Assembly (NCBI RefSeq): GCF_003397705.1
Contig: NZ_QJVB01000004.1
Coordinates: 1 to 64,000, forward strand
DNA: 64,000 nucleotides
Direction of reading: 5' to 3'
Origin: Gardnerella swidsinskii
GTDB lineage: Bacteria; Actinomycetota; Actinomycetes; Actinomycetales; Bifidobacteriaceae
The notes below the pieces were generated by a model. That model saw only the letters and a program-made list of their open reading frames with translations, was not told the DNA's origin and searched no databases. This document shows, one piece after another, positions 31,242-44,825 of this stretch. The first letter of the stretch is position 1. Each line of letters starts with the position of its first letter. Both the position numbers and the translations under genes were made by a program.

Positions 31242-32138
31242 ATGACTGATGAATTCAATTTCGAAGAAGCGAGTGAAGCTGATGAGGCTTTTGCTTCTCA
31301 TGATGCTGACGAAGCAAACGAATCAGCTGTGAATAATGAAGTTGCTGCTTCTAGCGAGTCCGTTGAAGCTGATGTGGATGAGGAATCTGCTGATGTTGCA
31401 GCTGATGTAGCTGATGGCGCTGCTGCTGACAGTGTTGCTGATGCTTCTAACGAAACTGGCGAAACTAGCGATGCTGATGAAACTACTGATGCTGACGATG
31501 CGAACGAAGCCGACCCAACTGATGCCGGCGCAATCGCTGTAGCAGAGTTTTCTAAGAAACTTCGCACTTTGGAAGGCAAGTGGTACGTTCTTCACACGTA
31601 TTCTGGTTACGAAAAGCGCGTAAAAACTAACGTTGAATCCCGCGTGCAGAACTTTGGTTTGGAAGATAAGATTTTCCAGATTGAAGTTCCTATGGAAGAA
31701 GTCGAGAAGCATACGGAAAAGGGTAAGAAGGTTATTACTCGCGTGCGTGTGCCAGGCTATGTGTTGATTCGCATGTGGCCGGATGAGAACGCTCGCCGTA
31801 TTGTGCGCGAGACTGAGGGCGTGACTGGTTTCGTTGGTCCTTCTAGAGAGCCTGCACCATTGAGCCGCAAAGAAGTTGTGTCAATGATGGCTCCGATGAT
31901 TGCTTCTGAAGCTTTGAAGAATGCTGGCGATAAGCCGGCTGCAGCACGTAAGCGTAAGGTTGAGGTTGCTTACAAGGTTGGCGATCAGGTAACAGTTACC
32001 GACGGTCCATTCTCAACGATGGCAGCTGTGGTTTCGGATGTGGAGCCTACAACTCAGAAGCTTACGGTGTTGGTTTCCATCTTTGGACGTGAAACTCCTG
32101 TGGAGCTTGGATTCAACCAAGTGGAGCCGATTGTTTGA
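31242..32138 (+). CDS. nusG: Transcription termination/antitermination protein NusG
   Basis: This 298-residue elongation factor binds RNA polymerase. The first 110 residues are a highly acidic Ala/Asp/Glu/Ser region, longer than in E. coli but typical of actinobacteria. The NGN domain starts at [21 protein letters not shown] and includes [29 protein letters not shown]. The C-terminal KOW domain is [20 protein letters not shown] terminator follows. Confidence 0.96.
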
Positions 32139-32181
32139 GCTGAAAGCCTAGGCTTTTGTAGCTAGCTTTTGTAGATTTTAC

Positions 32182-32213
32182 AAACCGGGGTGCGTATTGC
32201 ACTCCGGTTTTTT
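32182..32213 (+). terminator. Terminator of secE-nusG
   Basis: AAACCGGGGTGC (32182-32193) pairs with GCACTCCGGTTT (32199-32210), with one G-T pair, and is followed by T's. The 320 bp from here to the pilus gene hold no gene, only the pilus promoter. Confidence 0.92.
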
Positions 32214-32384
32214 GTTTAGTTTTTGTTTAGTTTAGTTTTTTTGGTTTTGCTTGGTTTTTCGTTTTAGTTAGTTCGCTTATTTACTACGACACGCCATAAA
32301 ATGGGGAAATAATCCTAAATTTTCTTGCAATTACAGTGCTTTTATCAATGTAAATAATAAATATTTCCAAATATTTAGTTTGGC

Positions 32385-32415
32385 TTGCAAATAGGCGTGG
32401 GGGGGGGGGTATAGT
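32385..32415 (+). promoter_or_regulatory. Pilus promoter with 11-G tract against the -10 box
   Basis: TTGCAA (32385-32390) and TATAGT (32410-32415) are separated by 19 bp, of which the last 11 (32399-32409) are all G. Gain or loss of G changes the spacer; 9 G would give 17 bp. The design is that of phase-variable promoters. The leader to the ATG is about 110 nt. Confidence 0.75.
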
Positions 32416-32532
32416 GCTGAGTGTTTGGGAAGAGCGTTTTTAGCAGAGAATTTTAGCGAGAATTCGAGTTTTTCAGTGCCGTTGTAATAACGACATTATG
32501 ATATAAGAGGGCGAATTAGAAGGTAGGTGTAT

Positions 32533-34842
32533 ATGTTTAATTCGCATATATTTAGCCGTTTCCTTCGACTAGTGCGCTCAATTCGCCGTTCGTTATTTGC
32601 TTTTTTTGTGGCGATTGCAATATTGCTTGCTACTTTTGTGATTGCTCCAACTTATGCGTTGAGTGCTGGCGAAAGTGCTACTTCTACTGAGAAGGCTGAG
32701 GGTGCGAAGGCTGGTTCTACTAAGTCTGAGGGGGAGAAGCAACCTCAAAATGGATCTAGTAATACTGAGCCTAATAAGAAAAATACTGATACTTCAAGTA
32801 CTTTAAATAAAGATAATAAGGAATCGCAGTATGTTGAAAAGCGGCAGAAGTCTGATAGTAACAATGGTGTTGATAAGGCTAAGTTAGCTGAGACTGCTGT
32901 AAAGAAAAGCGTTAAAAAGAAAGACATTGATTCTGCGGAAGCTGTTAACGGCACTGACAGAAGCCCTAATGAAGAGACGCAGCTTCCTCCAGCTTGCAAG
33001 GGTAAGAAAAACTATAATACTCCTGAAAGATGCTACAGCATTACTTATAGTAAGGAGTTAATTATTAAAGGTACTGATAGTGAGCCTTATAATAGGGTTC
33101 CTCAGATTCTTACTCCAACAATAAAAGTTGCAGGTAAAGTGCAGCAAACATTACCTGATGGCGTTTGGCTTGGGTTGGAAAAGTATGTTAAAAGTGATGA
33201 TTCTGTAAAGTATGCTTTTTTCAAGGATAATAGTGGCAGTTATACTGTTAAATCTACGTATAGTGTATCTAATAGCGATGGTTCTATACGTTTTTTTGTA
33301 AGCAAATGGATGGCAGCTAAGACGTATAAGTTTAAGTTTGTAATACATTATCCAGATGGTTCTAAATCCAGACCTAAGAGCATTAGCGAGAAACTTGATG
33401 AAAAGGATTTACCTAAGGCTCAGCCCGGTGATTTGTCGCTTAGCTTATACGATTTTGGGAATGCGCAGGATGGTGTTGCGGTAAGTGGTAATAAAATTAT
33501 TATAAAACCAAAGTCTAAAGGTTCAGCTCCTAGCGGAGGTGCTGACGGCAGTACTACTGACAGTACTGATAAGAAAGATACTTACGATTCTATTAATAAG
33601 CTTTTTATTGAATCGAAATCGAAAGATAAGCTTGGTTTTATTTATCACCATATGATTTGCCATAAAGAGGGTAGTGGTGATAATGCTGATAGTTATGAGT
33701 TAGACAGAGTTAATGGTTTGAGCTTTAGTACGCAGCAGTTCAAGCATATGGAAAATCAGAATCGACCTGATAAAAATGCAGAGAATTCTGCTGTGTATGA
33801 GAATGATGATTATACTGAGCGCTCTCAAAGCTGGATTAGTGGCACGCCTAAAGAGGCTGGCACTTTTGAGTGCAAAGTGTTTGCTATTAAGGATGTTGAC
33901 TTAAAACAAGACTTATCAACTCATAAAAAGCCACAATCGTTTAAATTGGCAGAAGAGTTTGGCAAAAGAGTCAAAACTAATACAGATATGAAGTTATTGT
34001 TCGATAATCCAGAACGAAACATTGTTGAAGATAAGTGGGACAATAAAATATCTATTGCGAAAGGCGTTGACTGGGATTATAAGACTGTAATAATCCAGTT
34101 TGGAGATAAGCCAAAGCCAAAAATTAGTGATAATGATCTTACGCTGAAAGTGTATCCGTTTAAAACCAGCGATGGTTCGTTGCCGGCGGCATTGTCTAGC
34201 AGCAATAACAATATTTCTGCGATACTCGGCATGAGTCTTAAGCCGTTTGTTGATGCTACTTCTGCGGCGGATAGCACGAATAAGATTACGTTGCGCGTGC
34301 TGTGCTCGAAGGGCGAGAAGAAGAATAAGTCTCTTGAATACAATACTTGGAGCAGAAATCTTGACGAGCTTGGGTTGAGTGTGCCTGGGGATAAGGATCA
34401 AACTAGATGCAATAAAGCAGGAAAAGGCGATAACGAATGTACTGCGGATAAGATTGCGTCTCAAGCTTCTATGGAAGTGAGCATAAAGCCGACTAAGGTT
34501 GGCGATTACAGTTGTGTTGTATACGCGCTGAAGCCTGAAGCTCTAAATAAGTTTGATGCTTTAACAGGTACCTTAACTCCTGATTCAATAAAATCTGCGC
34601 TAACTTCTGCAACTCCTACTGCTTTTAAAGAAAAGAAGGAGTTTGCTGCTTTTACGTTCAATATTCACTTGGCGAGTAATTTTACTTTGCCGAATACGGG
34701 CGGTCAGAGTTGGAATTTGCAGTTTGGTATTCTTTCTGCTCTGTTGGTAAATCTGCTGGCGGCTGGCTTCGTGGTAAGTCAAAGTGAGTGCGCTCGCAAA
34801 TTAATTTTTGGAAGGCGGCGAGGCTTATGCAATCACGTATGA
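32533..34842 (+). CDS. LPXTG surface protein of the pilus cluster (probable tip or ancillary subunit)
   Basis: This protein of 769 residues has a long signal peptide (about 1-45, RSIRRSLFAFFVAIAILLATFV), a Lys/Ser/Thr-rich linker (45-150), a large region of repeated beta-rich segments without a named family, and the sorting signal LPNTG at 719-723, with a hydrophobic helix and basic tail. Two related modules (about 355-460 and 580-690) share the pattern of Cys, KAGTFECKVFAIKDV / KVGDYSCVVYALKPE. ATG 32533 is chosen after AGAAGGTAGG; GTG 32527 overlaps that site. Being first in a pilin-sortase cluster suggests a tip adhesin or minor pilin. Confidence 0.8.
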   Translation: MFNSHIFSRFLRLVRSIRRSLFAFFVAIAILLATFVIAPTYALSAGESATSTEKAEGAKAGSTKSEGEKQPQNGSSNTEPNKKNTDTSSTLNKDNKESQYVEKRQKSDSNNGVDKAKLAETAVKKSVKKKDIDSAEAVNGTDRSPNEETQLPPACKGKKNYNTPERCYSITYSKELIIKGTDSEPYNRVPQILTPTIKVAGKVQQTLPDGVWLGLEKYVKSDDSVKYAFFKDNSGSYTVKSTYSVSNSDGSIRFFVSKWMAAKTYKFKFVIHYPDGSKSRPKSISEKLDEKDLPKAQPGDLSLSLYDFGNAQDGVAVSGNKIIIKPKSKGSAPSGGADGSTTDSTDKKDTYDSINKLFIESKSKDKLGFIYHHMICHKEGSGDNADSYELDRVNGLSFSTQQFKHMENQNRPDKNAENSAVYENDDYTERSQSWISGTPKEAGTFECKVFAIKDVDLKQDLSTHKKPQSFKLAEEFGKRVKTNTDMKLLFDNPERNIVEDKWDNKISIAKGVDWDYKTVIIQFGDKPKPKISDNDLTLKVYPFKTSDGSLPAALSSSNNNISAILGMSLKPFVDATSAADSTNKITLRVLCSKGEKKNKSLEYNTWSRNLDELGLSVPGDKDQTRCNKAGKGDNECTADKIASQASMEVSIKPTKVGDYSCVVYALKPEALNKFDALTGTLTPDSIKSALTSATPTAFKEKKEFAAFTFNIHLASNFTLPNTGGQSWNLQFGILSALLVNLLAAGFVVSQSECARKLIFGRRRGLCNHV

Positions 34843-35087
34843 AGCAGTTGTATATGCATTTACTCGCCGTGCTTCGCATAAGGCGACTACGTACGCATTT
34901 GCGCATCAAGCCTTCCTGTTTCGCGCATTGTTTTATTGCGTATTGTTTTATTGCGCAGTCTTTCGGGATTCGGGAGCGTGATAACACAAGGTAAATGCCA
35001 AAAATTTTAAAACTCTACTCGTCAAGAGCATTATCAATGCAAACTAATTCTCTACTTGCCGTAAAACGGCATACGAAAGGAGTGAAC

Positions 35088-36929
35088 ATGAAAAAGTTCA
35101 CTAATAAATTCGTGGCGGCGGTTGCGTCGCTTGCGATGGCTGGCACGCTGTGCGTCGCCGGCGCTGTAACTGTGGCTGGAGTTGCGTGGGCTAGTAAGCC
35201 GGGTGTTCCACAACCTTCTGTTAAAATGGGTCCTAAGGCTCCATGGGAGAGTGAAGCTCCGACAACCGGTAGTTTAACTATTGTTAAGTGCAAGAAAAAG
35301 GATGTCTCTACAACTACTACTACCGTTGCTTCGTCTAGTACTGCTAATGCGTCCGCATCTAATGAGATAGGCAAAACGCAAGATACATCTTGCCCTGCTG
35401 GTTTTGAACCTCTTAAAGATGTTAGTTTCACTGTAACTAAAGTTGCATCCATTAAGGAAGGAACTAATGATGTTACTTTGAATCTTGCGGAGTATGTTTC
35501 TTGGCAGAAGATTGCTGGTATTGTTTCTAAGTTAAATGCTCATCCGGAAGAAGCTGGAGTTGTAACTCTTGGAACTGGAACTGATGTGCACAATATGACT
35601 GCTACAGACAAGGATGGTAAGTCTACACTTAATAATCTTGCTGTTGGTTTGTATAAGATTGTTGAGAAGGTTCCTGATGGTTATGGTGCTTACGATTTTA
35701 GTAGTTTCTACATGACTTTGCCTTTGATTGAACAGAAGACTGATAATGGCAAGACCACAACTGTGTATGAGTATAATCCTGTAGTTAAGCCAAAGAATAT
35801 TGATCTTTCTTCTGCAATTAAGAAGAATGTTGATAAATCTCACATTTTTGCTGGTGTAAAAGATAAAATTTACTACACAATTACCGCGAAGGTGAACAAG
35901 ACTAAGATTGACAAGGATTTGACTGAGAAGAATCTTAAGGATTACGCGGTATTCGATGATGCTCCAACCTCAGCGTTTACAGAACCTAATAATCAGGGAC
36001 TTGATGCTGCTGTGCAGTCTGTAAAGTTCGGTACAGGTAGTGATTCTACCTTTACTAAGGGTGAGAACAACGACTACACCGTTACTGCAATGGCTAATTC
36101 TGATAATGCTGAGATTACTACAGCTGGAGATACTAAAGGTCTTGCTGCTGGTCACACTCGCATTCTTGTGAAGTTCACTGAAGCAGGTTTGAAGAAAATT
36201 GCTTCTAAGTTGAATAACGTTGCTGCTGGATCTGAGGCTCCTCAAGTTGAGGTTGAGCTTGCGTTTGACATAAGTAAAGCCTTCAAGGATTCTACTACAG
36301 ATAAGACTATTACTAATAAGTCTGGCTTCTTCCCAGCTCATGATGAGGGTACTACTGCACCGAATCCTATAATTCCTAATGTTGATGGCAGTAAGCCTAC
36401 AGTCAAGTTTGGTTATTTGCAGGTTGATAAGTACAATTCTGAAGATGAGAGTAAAAAGCTTTCTGGTGCTGAATTCAAGATATTTACCGACAAAAATAAA
36501 GCAGATTTGTGCACCAAGTCTCTTAAGGAAAATACAGCAGTAGATGCGGAAGATAGTCCTTGCAAGGCCGCTTCTGCATTTGATGAAACTACTGTTGAAG
36601 GCGGTAAATTCTCTAATCCTTACAAGGCTGAAGCTGGTTCAACGCTGTATGTTGTTGAGGTTAAGGCTCCTGAAGGATTTGCTTTGTCTCCTGTGGTTAA
36701 GGAAATAACTGTTAAGGATACAACTACCAACGATAATCCTGATACTTTGGAATTCCCTAACATTCCATTGCATGGTGAAAAAGGCGGTAACAAGTTCTGG
36801 TTCAATCTTCCTGCAACTGGTGCTGCTGGCGTGATTCTGTTTGCGCTTGCTGGCATAGGCTTGATTGCAGCAAGCGTGTTCCTCTACATGCGCAATCGCA
36901 AAGAAGAGGAACAGCAGCAGAACGCCTGA
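35088..36929 (+). CDS. Major pilin (SpaA/FimA-type, LPXTG)
   Basis: This 613-residue pilin backbone starts at ATG 35088 after GAAAGGAG and has a signal peptide ending near AWA. The pilin motif is NPVVKPKN (Lys236 is the likely linkage residue). An E-box (LYVVEVKAPEGF) lies in the last CnaB-type domain, where the opening LQVDKYNSEDESKKLSGAEFKI is typical. The sorting signal LPATG is at 574-578, with a helix and RNRKEEEQQQ tail. The sortase encoded next would polymerise it through LPATG and the pilin Lys. Adhesive pili are the expected product. Confidence 0.9.
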   Translation: MKKFTNKFVAAVASLAMAGTLCVAGAVTVAGVAWASKPGVPQPSVKMGPKAPWESEAPTTGSLTIVKCKKKDVSTTTTTVASSSTANASASNEIGKTQDTSCPAGFEPLKDVSFTVTKVASIKEGTNDVTLNLAEYVSWQKIAGIVSKLNAHPEEAGVVTLGTGTDVHNMTATDKDGKSTLNNLAVGLYKIVEKVPDGYGAYDFSSFYMTLPLIEQKTDNGKTTTVYEYNPVVKPKNIDLSSAIKKNVDKSHIFAGVKDKIYYTITAKVNKTKIDKDLTEKNLKDYAVFDDAPTSAFTEPNNQGLDAAVQSVKFGTGSDSTFTKGENNDYTVTAMANSDNAEITTAGDTKGLAAGHTRILVKFTEAGLKKIASKLNNVAAGSEAPQVEVELAFDISKAFKDSTTDKTITNKSGFFPAHDEGTTAPNPIIPNVDGSKPTVKFGYLQVDKYNSEDESKKLSGAEFKIFTDKNKADLCTKSLKENTAVDAEDSPCKAASAFDETTVEGGKFSNPYKAEAGSTLYVVEVKAPEGFALSPVVKEITVKDTTTNDNPDTLEFPNIPLHGEKGGNKFWFNLPATGAAGVILFALAGIGLIAASVFLYMRNRKEEEQQQNA

Positions 36930-36969
36930 TCCGCTTTCTAAAGCTGGTCTTGTAGTCTAATAGCAAAGT

Positions 36970-37008
36970 GTGAGTCTAGGGTTTACTGAACTAAAATCCT
37001 AGACTCAC
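36970..37008 (+). terminator. Hairpin between pilin and sortase genes
   Basis: GTGAGTCTAGG (36970-36980) pairs perfectly with CCTAGACTCAC (36998-37008) across a 17-nt loop. There is no long T run, so it may be a partial terminator or a 3' stabiliser that lowers sortase relative to pilin expression. Confidence 0.6.
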
Positions 37009-37082
37009 TTGCTCTAAAAACGTGTGTTTTCACGCGTAATTTGAAACAAAATTTACGTGTATAAACGTTACAAGGAAGAAGC

Positions 37083-38120
37083 ATGAAATTAAACGACGCT
37101 GTTGTTAAAGTATATGCTTTCTTCAAGCAACTCAAAGCAAAACCCGTCGCTCAAGCAAAACCCGTCGCTTCCGCAACCGAAACAACACCAGCCTCCACAG
37201 CAGCGCAAACCGCAGCCTCCGCAACTGCAACAAAACCCGCTAAAAAACCCAAATCCAAACTCCGCCGCACTCTCGAGCCAATTGCCCTCGCACTTGCAGC
37301 AATTTTGTGCTTCACGTACCCGGTTGCGTCAACGTTGTGGAATAACAAGGTGTCGAAGGAGATTTCTACCGCGTATGATCGTTTGAATCGTAAGCAGATT
37401 GCGAGTGCTCGCGAGAAGATTTTGAACGCGGCTCGTCGTTATAATGCGCGCCACAAGTCGATTATTACGGCTGATCCGTACAATGGCACGACGGATTATA
37501 TGAAGACGCCGGAGTATAAGGAGTATGCGAAGCAGCTGGATGAGCCGATGGGGATTATGGGTATTGTGAAAATCCCGAAGATTGGCGTTAAGCTGCCGAT
37601 TTACCACGGTAGTTCGCAGGAGGTTTTGGCGTATGGCGCTGGACACTTGTATGGCACAGATTTGCCGGTTGGGGGTAAAACGCGTCACGCTGTTGTGACG
37701 GCGCATACGGGTTTGCCAAATGCGACCATGTTTGATGATTTAGTGGAGTTGAAGAAGGGTGATTTCTTCTACTTTGACGTGCAGGGGGAGACGCTGCGTT
37801 ACAGGGTATTCCGCATTAGCGTGGTCGATCCGCATGATATTAGGTTACTTCAACGCGAGAATGGGCGTGATCTGGCGACGCTGCTTACCTGTACGCCGTA
37901 TGGTGTTAATACGCAGAGATTGCTGGTGACAGGCTATCGCGTGCTGCCGGATCCTGTTTCCGTGCCGGGCGATAAGTTGCAGTGGCCGCTTTGGATGACG
38001 ATGTTTGTGCTCGCGCTTATTGGTTGCGCTGTGATTCTTACGACGATGATTATTGCCGCGGTTCGCAAGCGCCACCGCCGTGCTGCTTCACTTGCTCATG
38101 CCAAACATATAACTGCTTAG
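37083..38120 (+). CDS. Class C (pilin-polymerising) sortase
   Basis: This 345-residue membrane enzyme has an N-terminal Pro/Ala/Lys-rich cytoplasmic part, a first helix near 70-88, the catalytic domain, and a C-terminal helix (LWMTMFVLALIGCAVILTTMI). The active site is His208 (TAHTGL), Cys270 (LLTCTPYG) and Arg279 (NTQRLLVTG). The lid motif DPY (ITADPYNG) before the core is typical of class C. It would link pilin subunits and the LPNTG protein. Confidence 0.93.
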   Translation: MKLNDAVVKVYAFFKQLKAKPVAQAKPVASATETTPASTAAQTAASATATKPAKKPKSKLRRTLEPIALALAAILCFTYPVASTLWNNKVSKEISTAYDRLNRKQIASAREKILNAARRYNARHKSIITADPYNGTTDYMKTPEYKEYAKQLDEPMGIMGIVKIPKIGVKLPIYHGSSQEVLAYGAGHLYGTDLPVGGKTRHAVVTAHTGLPNATMFDDLVELKKGDFFYFDVQGETLRYRVFRISVVDPHDIRLLQRENGRDLATLLTCTPYGVNTQRLLVTGYRVLPDPVSVPGDKLQWPLWMTMFVLALIGCAVILTTMIIAAVRKRHRRAASLAHAKHITA

Positions 38121-38169
38121 AATTGCTGTAATGCAGCGTGTCGCGAAGATTTAGAGAAATAACACCTTG

Positions 38170-38255
38170 ATTTTCGTGAAAATTCGGCATATATTTACCC
38201 CTGATTTCGTGAAAATTTAGCATAAATTGACATTGATTTTCGTGAAATATATACT
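38170..38255 (+). promoter_or_regulatory. Promoter with three operator-like repeats for the DUF4143 ATPase
   Basis: ATTTTCGTGAAAAT, a near-palindrome, occurs at 38170-38183 and, slightly shortened, at 38204-38216 and 38236-38248, i.e. every 32-34 bp. A consensus-like promoter TTGACA (38227-38232), 17 bp, TATACT (38250-38255) encloses the third copy. Helical phasing of about three turns suggests cooperative repressor binding. Confidence 0.75.
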
Positions 38256-38306
38256 ATAAAACAATAGTATTTTCAACGGTTTTGTGGTAATTAAGAGTGG
38301 TGTTAT

Positions 38307-39674
38307 ATGTTAAGGCGAAAATTTTATCAAAAAATGCTCGATTGGAAGAATGCTGATCGCGGTTCAACAGCGCTTTTAGTAACAGGTGCTCGAAGAGTTG
38401 GGAAAAGTACTATAGTTGAAGAGTTTGCAAGAAACGAATACAAGTCTTATATTCTTATTGATTTTTCGCAAGCATCAAAAGATGCGCTTCGGCTATTTGA
38501 AGATTATCGTTCAGATTTAAGCACTTTCTTTACATACATATCTGCACTATATGGTGTGAAACTTTATAACCGTGAATCGGTAATGGTTTTTGACGAAGTG
38601 CAATTTTTCCCACAGGCTAGAGAATTTGTAAAACAACTAGTTGCAGATGGCAGATACGACTATATAGAGACTGGCTCGTTATTGTCTATTAAACACAATG
38701 TTGAAACAATATTGATTCCATCTGAAGAACAAGAAGAACGCATGTATCCTCTTGATTTTGAAGAATTTTTGTGGGCTTTTGGAGAAGAAAATCTATCGAA
38801 AGTTATTAAAGATTCATTTGATGAGTTAAATCCTTTGCCAGATGTTTTACATAAAAAAGCGATGCGACTTTTTAGAGAATATATGCTAGTTGGTGGCATG
38901 CCGCAGTCTGTAAATGAATATGTTGATTCGAGAGATTTTGCTCGAGTAGATAGGGTTAAGCGTCGTATTCTTTCGCTCTATAGGCAGGATGCTGCAAAGT
39001 TTGCAAAAGGTTATGAAATGAAAGTTATGTCTGTGTTTGATGGAATACCAGCACAGCTTTCCAGACATGAAAAAAGATATAGGATTACTTCCTTAGGTAA
39101 GAATGCTCGTATGCGTGACTATAAGGATGCGTTTTTTTGGCTTTCGGATGCGAGTATTACAAATAATTGCTACAAATCTACAGATCCAAATGTGGGATTG
39201 AATCTTAATGCAGATGATGCGTTAGTAAAATGTTATATGGCTGATACCGGTTTGTTGACTTCTATGATACTTTCAGATAGTAGTATTGCGTCTAATGATC
39301 TGTATAAAGAAATTTTATTTGGAAAAATCTCAATTAATGAAGGAATGCTAGTTGAAAACGTTGTTGCGCAACAGCTAATAGCATCTGGACATCGCCTATT
39401 CTTCTATTCAAATAGAGACAAAGAAAATTCGGAAAATACTATGGAAATAGATTTTTTGATTTCTAAAGCTTTTCAGGATTCTGCTGGCAAAATGCGTATA
39501 TCTCCTATTGAAGTTAAATCTGGGAATGTGTTTAAAACAGTTTCTCTTGATAAATTTAAGAACAAGTTTTCAAAAAGAATTGGAACTAGTTATGTATTTG
39601 CTCCTAAACAGCTTAGCGTTAGAAAAGATTTGAATCTCGTAATATTACCACTTTATATGTGTGGATTGGTGTAG
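38307..39674 (+). CDS. AAA ATPase with DUF4143 domain
   Basis: This 455-residue protein has the N-terminal AAA_14 domain with Walker A TGARRVGKST, Walker B VMVFDEVQF, the sensor ETGSLLS, and the C-terminal DUF4143 part with LVENVVAQQLIASG and MEIDFLISK (nuclease-like core E/D-x-D), followed by IEVKSG. The family is widespread in host-associated bacteria and of unknown role. It is monocistronic and under its own triple-site promoter. It lies at the edge of an accessory stretch. Confidence 0.88.
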   Translation: MLRRKFYQKMLDWKNADRGSTALLVTGARRVGKSTIVEEFARNEYKSYILIDFSQASKDALRLFEDYRSDLSTFFTYISALYGVKLYNRESVMVFDEVQFFPQAREFVKQLVADGRYDYIETGSLLSIKHNVETILIPSEEQEERMYPLDFEEFLWAFGEENLSKVIKDSFDELNPLPDVLHKKAMRLFREYMLVGGMPQSVNEYVDSRDFARVDRVKRRILSLYRQDAAKFAKGYEMKVMSVFDGIPAQLSRHEKRYRITSLGKNARMRDYKDAFFWLSDASITNNCYKSTDPNVGLNLNADDALVKCYMADTGLLTSMILSDSSIASNDLYKEILFGKISINEGMLVENVVAQQLIASGHRLFFYSNRDKENSENTMEIDFLISKAFQDSAGKMRISPIEVKSGNVFKTVSLDKFKNKFSKRIGTSYVFAPKQLSVRKDLNLVILPLYMCGLV

Positions 39675-39698
39675 CGTTCCGACCTGCCTTCGCGCTGC

Positions 39699-39783
39699 TA
39701 TGTAGTGCACTTATTCCTCACGGCTTAGCCGTTTGGCTGATTTGGCATGACATGCCGTAAATCAGGTACAAGCGCACTACATA
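39699..39783. other. 85-bp nested palindrome able to form a three-way junction
   Basis: Outer arms TATGTAGTGC (39699-39708) and GCACTACATA (39774-39783) pair perfectly. Inside are ACGGC-TTA-GCCGT (39720-39732) and a longer arm with CTGATTT / AAATCAG (39737-39743, 39759-39765) capped by GGCATG / CATGCC (39744-39749, 39751-39756). It could be an RNA structure, a terminator or a palindromic mobile element. Between it and 40022 lies only the shared leader. Confidence 0.7.
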
Positions 39784-39836
39784 AATGTGCTGTGCGTTTG
39801 TATTAAAACCGATTTTTTTTGTTGCTTTTTATTTGT

Positions 39837-39961
39837 GGAATCTTATAGAATTATATTTATGCGCTGATGCATGCTAGTTTTGCTAGTTGTTAGATGTTTT
39901 ATGGCTTGTGATTGATTTTTGGGAATAACCCTGATTGCTTGCGATTCATGGGTTTTGTGTT
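39837..39961 (+). repeat. Leader segment shared with the KilA-N gene
   Basis: This is a second copy of the 18938-19057 segment, upstream of the ORF6N gene. It is identical over TTATGCGCTGATGCATGCTA and has small indels elsewhere. Confidence 0.8.
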
Positions 39962-40021
39962 AGAAATGTAGTTTTTGTTGTACAGCGCTAGGTTTTACGC
40001 ACATTTTTTAGGAGTGATCTT

Positions 40022-41044
40022 ATGGTAGAGGGGAATAAAAATCTAATTATCGCTGACTCTAAAAACGCGTCTGTTGGAATGATAATAGACGCTGAAACAA
40101 TAAAAGAGAAAATCTACAACATTCGTAATCAAAAAGTCATGCTTGATTTTGAGCTTGCTGAAATATATGGGTATGAAACGAAAAATTTCAATAGACAGAT
40201 TAAGAATAATATTGAAAAGTTTGAGGGCGAAGATTTTATGTTTCGGCTAACTGCTGACGAGTTCAAAAACTTGAGGTGCAAAAATTTCACCTCAAGTTGG
40301 GGTGGCTCTCGATATTTGCCTTATGCTTTTACGGAGCAGGGTATTTATATGCTCATGACTGTGTTAAGAGGTGATCTTGCTGTTAAACAGAGTAGGGCAT
40401 TAGTTAGAACCTTTAAGCAAATGAAGGATTATATTGTTGAAAATAAGGATTTTATTGGCGCGAAGGAATTAGCTAAGCTTGCGATTCAAACGAATCAGAA
40501 TACTAATGATATAGCGGAAATAAAATCTCAAATGGCAACGAAGGAAGATTTTAATAAGGTAATGGATAATTTTATTAATCCAGATTCGTATAAACATTTT
40601 CTTCTTATGGACGGCAATAAAATAGAAGCGGATCTTGCGTATTGCAAAATATATAAGTCAGCTAAGAAAAGCATTTACGTTGTTGATAATTATATTGGTC
40701 TTAAAACATTGGAACTATTACGGTTTGCTGGTGAAGGGGTTGAAATCGTAGTTTTTAGTGATAACGCTAGGAGCAAGAATATGCTTACGGAAAGCATGTT
40801 GGGTGATTTTGTAAGCGATTGTCCTGGTGTTGATTTGAAGTTTAAGACTGCTGGCAGAAAGTATCACGATAGGTATGTGGTTATAGATTATGGAACGGAT
40901 GATGAGGCTGTTTACGTTTGTGGCGCTTCGTCGAAAGATGCTGGCGGCAAAATTTCGACTATTACGCGAATAGAGTCTTTGAATTTGCGCTTGTATCATG
41001 CGATGTTTGATGAGTTGTTAAAGAATCCTGAGTTAGAGTTTTAA
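40022..41044 (+). CDS. ORF6N DNA-binding protein with PLD-like C-terminal domain
   Basis: This 340-residue protein has an ORF6N domain at about 25-115 (IYNIRNQKVMLDFELAEIYG, NFNRQIKNNIEKF, YLPYAFTEQGIYMLMTVL), typical of phage antirepressor-like proteins. A helical linker (130-180) joins it to a C-terminal domain resembling phospholipase D-like folds: His282, Arg284 and Asp289 in YHDRYVVID follow the HxKx4D spacing with Arg for Lys, and GASSKDAG follows. Whether the altered motif is active is unknown. AGGAGTGATCTT precedes the ATG. It shares its upstream leader with the KilA-N gene at 19135. Confidence 0.85.
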   Translation: MVEGNKNLIIADSKNASVGMIIDAETIKEKIYNIRNQKVMLDFELAEIYGYETKNFNRQIKNNIEKFEGEDFMFRLTADEFKNLRCKNFTSSWGGSRYLPYAFTEQGIYMLMTVLRGDLAVKQSRALVRTFKQMKDYIVENKDFIGAKELAKLAIQTNQNTNDIAEIKSQMATKEDFNKVMDNFINPDSYKHFLLMDGNKIEADLAYCKIYKSAKKSIYVVDNYIGLKTLELLRFAGEGVEIVVFSDNARSKNMLTESMLGDFVSDCPGVDLKFKTAGRKYHDRYVVIDYGTDDEAVYVCGASSKDAGGKISTITRIESLNLRLYHAMFDELLKNPELEF

Positions 41045-41077
41045 CATTTTATAATGTTCTAGTGTTTTGCGCTCAAC

Positions 41078-41095
41078 TTGGAAGTAGACTTCCAA
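41078..41095 (+). repeat. TTGGAAGT palindrome, distant copy
   Basis: This is a perfect copy of TTGGAAGTAGACTTCCAA, between the ORF6N gene and the broken Panacea gene. Nearby TTGCGCAAA repeats also match those next to the 18761 cluster. Confidence 0.85.
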
Positions 41096-41138
41096 CTTTT
41101 GCTGTTGCGCAAATGTAGTTGCGCAAAGGGAGGTGCGT

Positions 41139-41590
41139 ATGACAACAATCTTTAACGTGGCATCGTACATCCTTGATATTGCTGGAACTATTACTACTAT
41201 GAAGCTTCAGAAGTTAGCTTACTATTCGCAAGCGTATTTACTGGATATCCATTATTTAACGAGGATTTTCAGGCATGGAGAAATGGTCCTGTTTGCCCAG
41301 AATTATTTGCATTGCATCGCGGTAAGTTTTTGATTCGTAAAGGGGAGCTTGTGCTTCCTAGCACTGATAAGTTGAATGATGATTCTTTAACAGATGGTCA
41401 AAAGCTTCTTGTGGAAAAAGTGTGCAAAAAGTTTGCTGAGTGTTCTGGTAGTGATTTGAGTGCTATGACACATCGTGAGGATCCATGGAAGAATGCTTAT
41501 GATGCTACTAATAGTTCGGCAATATGCGTTCAAAAAATTACTAAGGATTCTTTGAAAGAGTACTGTTCAGTTCATAATTTGCTTAAGTAA
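41139..41590 (+). pseudogene. Broken Panacea/SocA-type antitoxin-like gene (frameshifted)
   Basis: The DNA aligns along its length with the intact gene at 46458-46919. After the shared MTTIFNVA...MKLQKLAYYSQAY the broken copy lacks 10 bp (after about 41237), which shifts the frame. The original frame resumes with LHRGKFLIRKGELVLP and continues to the normal stop. Both parts remain highly similar to the intact paralogue, so the break looks recent. GGGAGGTGCGT precedes the ATG as in the paralogue. Confidence 0.85.
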
Positions 41591-41772
41591 ATGTGATATT
41601 CTCTTGTTCTCTTATTTGCTCTGAGTTAGTTATAGCGTTGCTCGAGATTTGTGGAGTTTGTATTAAGAGCATAGAAGTAAAGCATGATATGGTAGCTTGA
41701 AAACAACGCAATACTTATAATTCATGCAAATCGTCTTACAAAGGGATTTTTACAAGAGATAAGGGATGCGAG

Positions 41773-42063
41773 ATGACTAGGGATACGTATACTGCGGAAA
41801 ACGGATTCGTTATTACGGACGATATTGTTGATAAGTGGGCTGAGGAAGCAGAAGATAATTTTTCTGGTGCCACTATTACACAGTTTGCCGGAAGAGCTTG
41901 GGAAGATGAAACTCAGCCGTTGAAACCGCGTACTGTTAGGTTAAGTGATACCGTTTGGCATTTAATCGAAGCCGATGCGAAGCGTAGAAAGATGACTGTA
42001 AGTGCGTGGACTAGAAACGCTATACTTAACGAATTATCTAGTGAGATAGTTACGCAAAAATAG
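41773..42063 (+). CDS. Ribbon-helix-helix-type small protein
   Basis: This 96-residue protein is a relative of the protein at 20632: N-terminal ENGFVITDDIVDKWAEEAE aligns with its IDVTDEMLDKWESDAE. The C-terminal RTVRLSDTVWHLIEADAKRRKMTVSAWTRNAIL has the RHH pattern. No toxin-like partner is adjacent: 182 bp upstream hold no gene and rplK follows. It may be an orphan antitoxin or a regulator. Confidence 0.7.
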   Translation: MTRDTYTAENGFVITDDIVDKWAEEAEDNFSGATITQFAGRAWEDETQPLKPRTVRLSDTVWHLIEADAKRRKMTVSAWTRNAILNELSSEIVTQK

Positions 42064-42259
42064 CTATGTAAAAATAGCCGCAGTTTTCGTAATGATGCGT
42101 GTCGCGAAGATGTGGCATAATAGGAAGGCTTGTGACTGGAGGAGGAATCCGCTAGCACAGCACAGCAATACAAGATGCGGGAGGAAGCTGCAAAACGGCT
42201 TTATACCAGCGTTTGCAACAACCGTTTGAACCGCTTGTACAAGAAAGAAGAACCATATT

Positions 42260-42691
42260 ATGGCTCCGAAAAAGAAAGTCTCCGCGCTTATTAAGCTCGA
42301 GATTCAGGCTGGTAAGGCAAATCCAGCCCCACCACTGGGTCCAGCATTAGGCTCCCACGGCGTGAACATCATGGACTTCTGCAAGGCGTATAACGACCAG
42401 ACGAAGGACAAGATAGGCCAGATCGTCCCAGTTGAGATCACCGTTTACGAAGATCGTTCCTTCACCTTCATTTTGAAGACCCCACCAGCCGCTGCTTTGT
42501 TGCTTAAGGCTGCTGGCATTCAGAAGGGCACCGAGAATCCATTGACTCACAAGGTTGGTTCTGTGACCAAGGCTCAGGTGCGCGAGATCGCCGAAATTAA
42601 GATGCCTGACCTCTCCGCACGTGACGTCGAGGCCGGTATGAAGATCATCGCGGGCACCGCTCGCTCGATGGGTATTACCGTTACCGACTGA
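42260..42691 (+). CDS. rplK: 50S ribosomal protein L11
   Basis: This 143-residue protein of the GTPase-associated centre has the L11 signature [25 protein letters not shown] and C-terminal ARSMGITV. It is followed by rplA 14 bp later. The 196-bp leader (42064-42259) contains GGAGGAGG and GC-rich stretches but no gene. Codon use is more GC-rich than the neighbours, as expected for highly expressed genes. Confidence 0.97.
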
Positions 42692-44110: not shown

Positions 44111-44140
44111 TTGACTTTTTCGAACGGGGGGGGGTATGTT
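44111..44140 (+). promoter_or_regulatory. Promoter with 9-G tract against the -10 box
   Basis: TTGACT (44111-44116) and TATGTT (44135-44140) are 18 bp apart; the last nine spacer bases (44126-44134) are G. It is the same layout as the pilus promoter at 32385 and drives the LAKTG surface-protein gene 120 bp downstream. Confidence 0.75.
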
Positions 44141-44258: not shown

Positions 44259-44825
44259 ATGTTGAATAAGAAGGCTATCGCCGCATTCGCTGCTGGCGCA
44301 ACTTTGCTTTCCGGTCTCGCTTTCGCGGCTCCAGCTTTCGCTGAGGGTGCCGGTGATCAGACTACTCCAAAGACTGATCAGACTACTCCAAAGAATGATC
44401 AGACTGCTCCAAAGAATGATCAGACTGCTAACGATGATGATAATTGGCTCTATGAGACTGAGGACCCTGGTGCTCTTGCTGATCGTTTGAATGCTGAGAA
44501 GGCTGCTAAGGTTGCGGCTGACGAGAAAGATAAGTATGAGCATACTCCATTTGGCAATATGGACACGGATTACAAGAAGTGTGTGAAGCTTTACGGTGAA
44601 GATGCTCTCGAGTGCAAAGCTGTCGCTGACTACCTCAAGCGTCATGGTCAGAAGGTTGATGACAAGGCTAACGACAAGAAGTCTGATAAGAAGTCTGAAG
44701 CTAAGAAGTCTTCCGAGAAGAAGGCTGCTCCATTGGCTAAGACCGGTGCTGCTGTAGCTTTGGCTGCTGTTGCTGCTTCTGTGCTTGCTGGCATGGGTGT
44801 TGCTCTTCGCAAGATCCGTCACTAA
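44259..44825 (+). CDS. Small exported protein with LPXTG-like (LAKTG) anchor
   Basis: This 188-residue protein has a signal peptide (KKAIAAFAAGATLLSGLAFAAPAFA), a short repeat region DQTTPKT/DQTTPKN/DQTAPKN made by 21-bp tandem units at 44355-44417, a charged helical middle with two Cys, a Lys/Ser-rich stalk, and LAKTG followed by a helix and RKIRH tail. LAKTG departs from LPXTG at position 2, so sortase anchoring is probable but not certain. No named family was recognised. Codon use suggests high expression. GAAAGGAAAA precedes the ATG. Confidence 0.8.
   Translation: MLNKKAIAAFAAGATLLSGLAFAAPAFAEGAGDQTTPKTDQTTPKNDQTAPKNDQTANDDDNWLYETEDPGALADRLNAEKAAKVAADEKDKYEHTPFGNMDTDYKKCVKLYGEDALECKAVADYLKRHGQKVDDKANDKKSDKKSEAKKSSEKKAAPLAKTGAAVALAAVAASVLAGMGVALRKIRH

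What the first reader, a model, noticed from the sequence alone, without database searches (positions are those of the whole stretch)
32385..32415. Pilus promoter looks phase variable: 11-G tract inside the -35/-10 spacer
The sequence shows TTGCAA, 19 bp, TATAGT, and the last 11 spacer bases are G. Homopolymer tracts in promoter spacers switch fimbrial and outer-membrane genes in Haemophilus and Neisseria by slipped-strand mispairing. Loss of two G would give the favoured 17-bp spacer. The pilus (LPNTG protein, pilin, sortase) would then be on in some cells and off in others.
Basis: partly seen in the sequence, partly recalled or inferred. Interest (0 to 1): 0.85.

Follow-up and report, generated by a model that had tools for sequence, protein, structure and literature searches.

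The report
Pilus promoter with slippable G-run
In a close relative of the vaginal bacterium Gardnerella, a pilus operon starts just behind a predicted promoter that holds a run of 11 Gs; related species carry the same run before this operon at lengths of 9 to 12, so it likely slips during DNA copying and would turn this hair-like adhesion fibre up or down from cell to cell.

Summary
The run is far beyond chance for this window. Of 12 Gardnerella-group genomes searched, 11 (the window's own included) carry this pilus, and 11 of 11 have a G-run followed by TAT 2.6-4.9 kb upstream of the pilin. Nine of those promoters are fully readable (G9-G12); 8 of 9 have TTGNNN in place, with spacers of 17 (2), 18 (3) and 19 (3). 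The promoter belongs to a class: 63 of 100 readable G-run/TAT sites in these genomes have TTGNNN 7-9 nt before the run (background 13.5%), mostly ahead of proteins that look secreted; the rest of the genus shows about the background rate. MutS is absent from 12 of 12 and NucS, which does not repair small indels in mycobacteria, is present. Slipped-strand mispairing therefore likely tunes pilus transcription, as at Neisseria porA. Length variation within a population, the transcription start and length-dependent expression were not testable here. Gardnerella homopolymers and bifidobacterial pilus G-tracts are in print; my searches found no paper on this promoter class.

The parts
31242..32138 (+). 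nusG, upstream neighbour
   Evidence: PF02357
32182..32210 (+). predicted intrinsic terminator of nusG, which would isolate the pilus operon from nusG read-through
   Evidence: 13-pair stem followed by a T-run; kept in the alignment of five relatives
32385..32390 (+). predicted -35 hexamer TTGCAA
   Evidence: sequence; TTGNNN at the same place in 8 of 9 fully readable orthologous promoters
32399..32409 (+). G11 tract, last 11 bases of the 19-nt spacer 32391-32409
   Evidence: sequence; G9-G12 in the fully readable orthologues
32410..32415 (+). predicted -10 hexamer TATAGT
   Evidence: sequence; TATNNT in the orthologues
32527..34842 (+). 771-aa secreted LPNTG protein, first gene of the operon (start GTG 32527 or ATG 32533)
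   Evidence: ORF; no Pfam or NCBIfam family at E 0.001
34995..36929 (+). SpaH/EbpB-family LPXTG major pilin
   Evidence: NF033902, 388 bits against a cut-off of 95; PF17802 and PF00746
37083..38120 (+). class C (pilus) sortase
   Evidence: NF033745, 262 bits against a cut-off of 160; PF04203
44111..44140 (+). second promoter of the class in the window: TTGACT, 9 nt + G9, TATGTT (spacer 18)
44259..44825 (+). 188-aa protein with a signal-peptide-like start and a C-terminal LAKTG, behind that second promoter

Best explanation
The G11 run is likely the slippable part of the spacer of a predicted sigma-70-type promoter for a sortase-assembled pilus operon, and gain or loss of G by slipped-strand mispairing would change pilus transcription from cell to cell. 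Shown: the tract lies between TTGNNN and TATNNT hexamers that related species keep, behind the predicted nusG terminator and ahead of three pilus genes; its length differs between species (spacers 17, 18, 19); MutS was not found. Inferred: these hexamers are the promoter in use; the tract is unstable within a clone; spacer length sets promoter strength, with 17 or 18 probably stronger than 19. On that reading the genome as assembled (G11, spacer 19) would be in a low state. The same arrangement recurs ahead of other secreted proteins, so the pilus is probably one output of a larger set of independently switching surface genes.
For: Exact architecture and improbability of the run. Pilus operon identity. 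11 of 11 genomes with the pilus have the run plus TAT upstream. In three genomes the 22-mer made of the last four G and the next 18 bases is identical while the run is 11, 10 and 9. TTGNNN 7-9 nt before the run in 63 of 100 sites, 18 of 41 similarity clusters (background 13.5% and 10.8%); T at -10 position 6 in 50 of 63 sites with TTG against 5 of 37 without. 57 of 63 have an ORF of 120 aa or more downstream, 49 of 57 look secreted against 31 of 93 background ORFs. MutS 0 of 12, NucS 12 of 12; NucS does not repair 1-2 bp indels in M. smegmatis (PMC11551767, passage). A 9-bp homopolymer in another Gardnerella gene differed in 1 of 10 and 2 of 9 colonies (PMC11287997, section 11).
Against: No reads, no mapped start, no same-species strain: variation within a population is not shown. 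G075 has the run (G12) but no TTG at 7-9 nt. 23 of 41 clusters lack the TTG, and per cluster the -10 contrast is weak (11 of 18 against 5 of 23, p 0.02). G8TAT also exceeds its mirror control in other bifidobacteria that lack the TTG (139 against 37), so TAT after the run is not by itself proof of a -10. Two weak promoter-like sites on the + strand lie upstream of the tract. Paralogous pilus operons have such a run upstream in only 10 of 17. NR021's copy of this operon looks broken although its tract is intact.
Confidence: 0.72

Rival explanations
1. The tract is in a real promoter spacer, but length changes only tune expression a little or over evolutionary time; there is no meaningful switching within a population.
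For: Lengths cluster narrowly (G9-G12 at this promoter; spacers 17-19 in 57 of 63 sites of the class). Only between-species differences could be seen here.
Against: No MutS; frameshifts in runs of 7-9 nt reach 1 in 10^5 to 1 in 10^2 in mycobacteria, which also lack MutS (PMC10159617, passage); colony-level variation is published for another Gardnerella tract.
Confidence: 0.17
2. The promoter in use lies elsewhere and the G-run is only part of the leader or of upstream DNA.
For: Two weak consensus matches on the + strand upstream of the tract, 32286-32313 and 32330-32358; three in all on both strands against 1.0 expected.
Against: By eye in the five-way alignment the -35 half of the nearer one is not kept, while TTGNNN before the run is kept in all five. 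The genus-wide TTG/run/TAT spacing is not explained.
Confidence: 0.08
3. The reported length differences are sequencing or assembly errors in poly-G.
For: 8 of 108 runs sit exactly at a contig end or N gap, so such runs are hard to sequence; published B. breve work found that the annotated tract length differed from the commonest true length (PMC9187656, passages).
Against: Mixed true lengths would cause the same breaks; the runs themselves recur in 11 of 11 genomes; colony Sanger sequencing found real variation at another Gardnerella tract.
Confidence: 0.05

Closest known systems
Neisseria meningitidis porA promoter (poly-G between -35 and -10) and H. influenzae hifA/hifB (TA repeats); review PMC3899988, passage
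   Same: repeat in the promoter spacer, length sets transcription of a surface protein
   Different: Gram-negative; here a Gram-positive sortase pilus in a MutS-less actinobacterium, with many copies of the arrangement per genome; the effect of length is untested here
Bifidobacterium breve sortase-pilus G-tracts (PMC9187656, passages)
   Same: G-tract that varies and switches a sortase pilus in the same bacterial family
   Different: there the tract is inside the first gene and changes the reading frame; here it is upstream and no ORF of 80 aa or more covers it. The paper mentions other G-tracts in promoter spacers without giving data
Gardnerella homopolymer tracts (PMC11287997, abstract, sections 11-12 and passages)
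   Same: same genus; about 70% of G/C tracts lie upstream of ORFs, many of surface proteins; one tract varies between colonies
   Different: in the main text 'promoter', 'pilus' and 'pili' occur only in reference titles; its supplements were not readable here and may list this locus
Streptococcus gallolyticus Pil1 phase variation (PMC3894217, abstract and passages)
   Same: repeat-number switch of a Gram-positive sortase pilus
   Different: GCAGA repeats in a leader peptide with an attenuator; here a promoter spacer, and the only terminator found lies upstream of the promoter

Membership tests
Promoter-spacer simple-repeat contingency locus (porA/hif type) | simple repeat between -35 and -10 of the promoter in use | tested here: inconclusive
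   repeat lies between conserved hexamers; the transcription start is not mapped
Promoter-spacer simple-repeat contingency locus (porA/hif type) | repeat length differs between related genomes | tested here: met
   G9 to G12 in nine fully readable orthologous promoters of different species
Promoter-spacer simple-repeat contingency locus (porA/hif type) | repeat length varies reversibly within one clone | not testable with these tools
   no read data; one genome per species
Promoter-spacer simple-repeat contingency locus (porA/hif type) | transcription follows repeat length | not testable with these tools
   needs expression data
[quoted passage not shown]
   tract ends 117 nt before the first ORF; no ORF of 80 aa or more covers it
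S. gallolyticus Pil1-type leader-peptide attenuation | terminator between promoter and first pilus gene | tested here: not met
   the only terminator found in 32100-32560 is at 32182-32210, upstream of the promoter
SpaA-type sortase-dependent pilus operon | LPXTG major pilin followed by a class C sortase | tested here: met
   NF033902 and NF033745 above cut-off

The most novel reading that the evidence does not exclude
Gardnerella carries a lineage-specific class of stereotyped promoters (TTGNNN, 7-9 nt, G8-G13, TATNNT), 1 to 11 pattern matches in each of the 12 genomes, that switch pili, Rib/GA-domain proteins, a subtilase and LAKTG proteins independently. A clonal population is then a mosaic of surface types, which explains why piliation comes and goes on subculture.
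Probability: 0.5. Interest if true: 0.75.

Novelty: new member of a known kind. Interest (0 to 1): 0.62.

Why it matters
Pili were seen on some Gardnerella strains by electron microscopy in 1984 and 1987, with an extent that depended on cultivation and frequency of subculturing; later work found pilus genes but no pili (as stated in PMC12095359, passages), and a review says that the genes do not always give pili in vitro (PMC10187134, passage). A slippable promoter would be a direct, testable reason for that old inconsistency. It also gives a marker, tract length, that can be counted in clinical and metagenomic reads to ask which surface genes are on. If the wider class works the same way, surface expression in this genus cannot be read from gene content alone.

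Tried and rejected
Rejected: coding-frame switch at this tract; leader-peptide attenuation; chance run; a feature shared by all bifidobacteria. For the last: with a direct pattern, 64 of 110 G8TAT runs in 12 Gardnerella-group genomes carry TTG at the right distance, against 20 matches (19 distinct tracts) of 139 in 100 other genomes of the GTDB genus; the other 77 family genomes gave 5 matches. In 30 loci, one per genome, 0 of 30 have TTG at 7-9 nt; 29 of them are from outside the group and one, L126, is from G075.

Counting only those eight: G8TAT 66 against 4 for the mirror control, 36 of 66 with TTG. G000, G009, G109 and G111 are placed by inference.

Dropped before counting: two of 110 G8TAT sites (own-genome sites outside the loci that I fetched), leaving 108; eight of 108 without 60 readable bases upstream, leaving 100. 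The 41 clusters are greedy at 70% identity over 38 nt; one cluster holds 33 sites. The secretion test is my own hydrophobicity rule; its 93 background ORFs come from the window and seven Gardnerella-group loci.

Led nowhere: viral contigs for another copy of the promoter, 0 matches; no family for the 771-aa protein; the porA primary paper is not held; no same-species comparison, as the collections hold one genome per species.

Full report
OBSERVATION. The sequence is as described: TTGCAA 32385-32390, eight bases, G11 at 32399-32409, TATAGT 32410-32415; the spacer is 19. G/C runs in the window fall off to one run of six, then one of 9 (44126-44134) and this one of 11; a first-order model expects 0.0008 G-runs of 11 or more. 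The consensus scanner, limited to spacers of 16-18, does not list the site, so as assembled it is a sub-optimal promoter by that rule.

SURROUNDINGS. Upstream is nusG (31242-32138) with a predicted 13-pair terminator at 32182-32210. Downstream are a 771-aa secreted LPNTG protein, a SpaH/EbpB-family major pilin and a class C sortase, then a DUF4143 ATPase and an ORF6N protein, and at 42260 an ORF that I take for rplK (L11) from its sequence and place (recalled, not tested). No ORF of 80 aa or more covers the tract. The best nusG relatives among named records are isolates NR021 and NR047 (titled Bifidobacteriaceae) and Gardnerella strains, so I call the organism Gardnerella-like.

ORTHOLOGOUS PROMOTERS. 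The pilin was searched in 12 Gardnerella-group genomes. Besides the window's own, 10 have a pilin at 48-55% identity (in G043 in pieces, 51-68%); G109 has only paralogues at 39-40%. All 11 carriers have a run of at least eight G followed by TAT 2.6-4.9 kb upstream on the same strand. Nine promoters are fully readable. Run and spacer: G000 G11/19, G043 G10/18, G045 G9/17, G009 G11/19, G111 G10/18, G014 G10/17, G090 G11/19, G110 G11/18; G075 has G12 but no TTG 7-9 nt before it. In G022 and G060 the assembly breaks in the tract; the upstream side reads TTGAAT, eight bases, then G in both. In G000, G043 and G045 the 22-mer of the last four G and the next 18 bases is identical while the run is 11, 10 and 9. 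The region 5' of the tract is well conserved in a five-way alignment.

A CLASS OF PROMOTERS. The own genome has 13 G/C runs of 9 or more; 8 of 13 are followed directly by TAT and 6 of these 8 have TTG ending 7-9 nt before. Two of 13 lie inside long ORFs; 11 of 13 have an ORF of at least 60 aa starting within 420 nt, nine of which look secreted or surface-bound by eye. Pfam names behind such runs are Rib and GA domains, a subtilase, another pilin and an ACP synthase. In the 12 genomes G8TAT occurs 110 times against 12 for the mirror pattern; in 100 other genomes of the GTDB genus 139 against 37. Of 100 readable sites, 63 carry TTGNNN ending 7-9 nt before the run, against 13.5% in equal-width bins further upstream (p 3e-30); with one site per similarity cluster, 18 of 41 against 10.8% (p 7e-8). 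One near-identical family makes up 33 of the 100. Sites with TTG have T at -10 position 6 in 50 of 63, those without in 5 of 37; per cluster 11 of 18 against 5 of 23. Spacers of the 63: 16 (2), 17 (9), 18 (18), 19 (30), 20 (3), 21 (1). With a direct pattern, 64 of 110 runs in the group and 19 of 139 in the rest of the genus match, so in this sample the class belongs to the Gardnerella lineage. Downstream of the 63, 57 have an ORF of 120 aa or more at +20 to +420 and 49 of 57 look secreted, against 31 of 93 background ORFs; 3 of 63 lie inside an ORF of 120 aa or more. Of the 37 sites without TTG, 13 lie inside such ORFs. Paralogous pilins have such a run within 8 kb upstream in 10 of 17; two of the seven misses lie within 5 kb of a contig start (my reading of the coordinates).

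WHY IT SHOULD SLIP. MutS_V is found in 0 of 12 genomes while the control search rings in 11 of 14 known genomes; NucS is found in 12 of 12. NucS does not repair 1-2 bp indels in M. smegmatis (PMC11551767, passage), and frameshifts in 7-9 nt runs reach 1 in 10^5 to 1 in 10^2 in mycobacteria (PMC10159617, passage). In Gardnerella a 9-bp homopolymer tract differed in 1 of 10 and 2 of 9 colonies (PMC11287997, section 11). Eight of 108 runs coincide to the base with a contig end or N gap, as mixed lengths would cause, though poly-G sequencing trouble would too.

MECHANISM. I commit to slippage in the spacer of the pilus promoter. Shown: position, conservation of the hexamers, length change between species, operon identity, absence of MutS. 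Inferred: promoter use, variation within a clone, length-dependent transcription. The direction is open: 17 is the textbook optimum (recalled), but 18-19 is commonest in this class, and whether poly-G DNA shifts the optimum I did not test.

KNOWN OR NEW. It works like the porA and hif promoters; I file it there provisionally, because within-clone variation and effect on transcription could not be tested. It is not the intragenic B. breve switch nor the S. gallolyticus attenuator. My searches (openly licensed PMC papers only) brought up no paper on promoter-spacer tracts or a switching pilus promoter in Gardnerella; I saw listings, and passages of those cited. PMC9187656 mentions promoter-spacer G-tracts in B. 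breve without data, and PMC11287997 reports tracts upstream of surface genes in general, so the idea is close to print.

Noticed in passing
window 44111-44140 and 44259-44825; L095: A second promoter of the class (TTGACT, spacer 18 with G9, TATGTT) precedes a small secreted LAKTG protein; a near-identical promoter family with G9-G11 makes up 33 of the 100 readable sites in the group.
   Followed up: partly
L166, L186, L219, L222, L235, L244, L250, L263: G9-G11 run inside the signal-peptide coding region of a long secreted protein in several genomes, which looks like a translational on/off switch.
   Followed up: no
L098 and L100 (own genome): G10 inside a 939-aa ORF that looks like a restriction-modification enzyme by eye, and G9 inside a 1137-aa surface-like ORF.
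   Followed up: no
window 32416-32526; L015 and L018 downstream of the tract: The predicted 5' leader differs between species by copies of a repeat of about 12 bp (several TTTAGACAGTATG-like copies in NR047, extra copies in NR021), so a second variable element may lie in the leader.
   Followed up: no
window 32182-42260; L016, L017: The pilus operon and a few other genes sit between nusG and the ORF that I take for rplK; in L016 and L017 the two are adjacent, so the pilus looks like an insertion at this place or a loss there.
   Followed up: partly
L175 and L146 (G043 = NR021): The orthologous pilus genes look broken (first ORF 429 aa, pilin in pieces) while promoter and tract are intact.
   Followed up: no
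L105 (own genome C5:116953): A third pilin gene (GramPos_pilinD1) lies behind a G10 run that is followed by TAG and not TAT.
   Followed up: no
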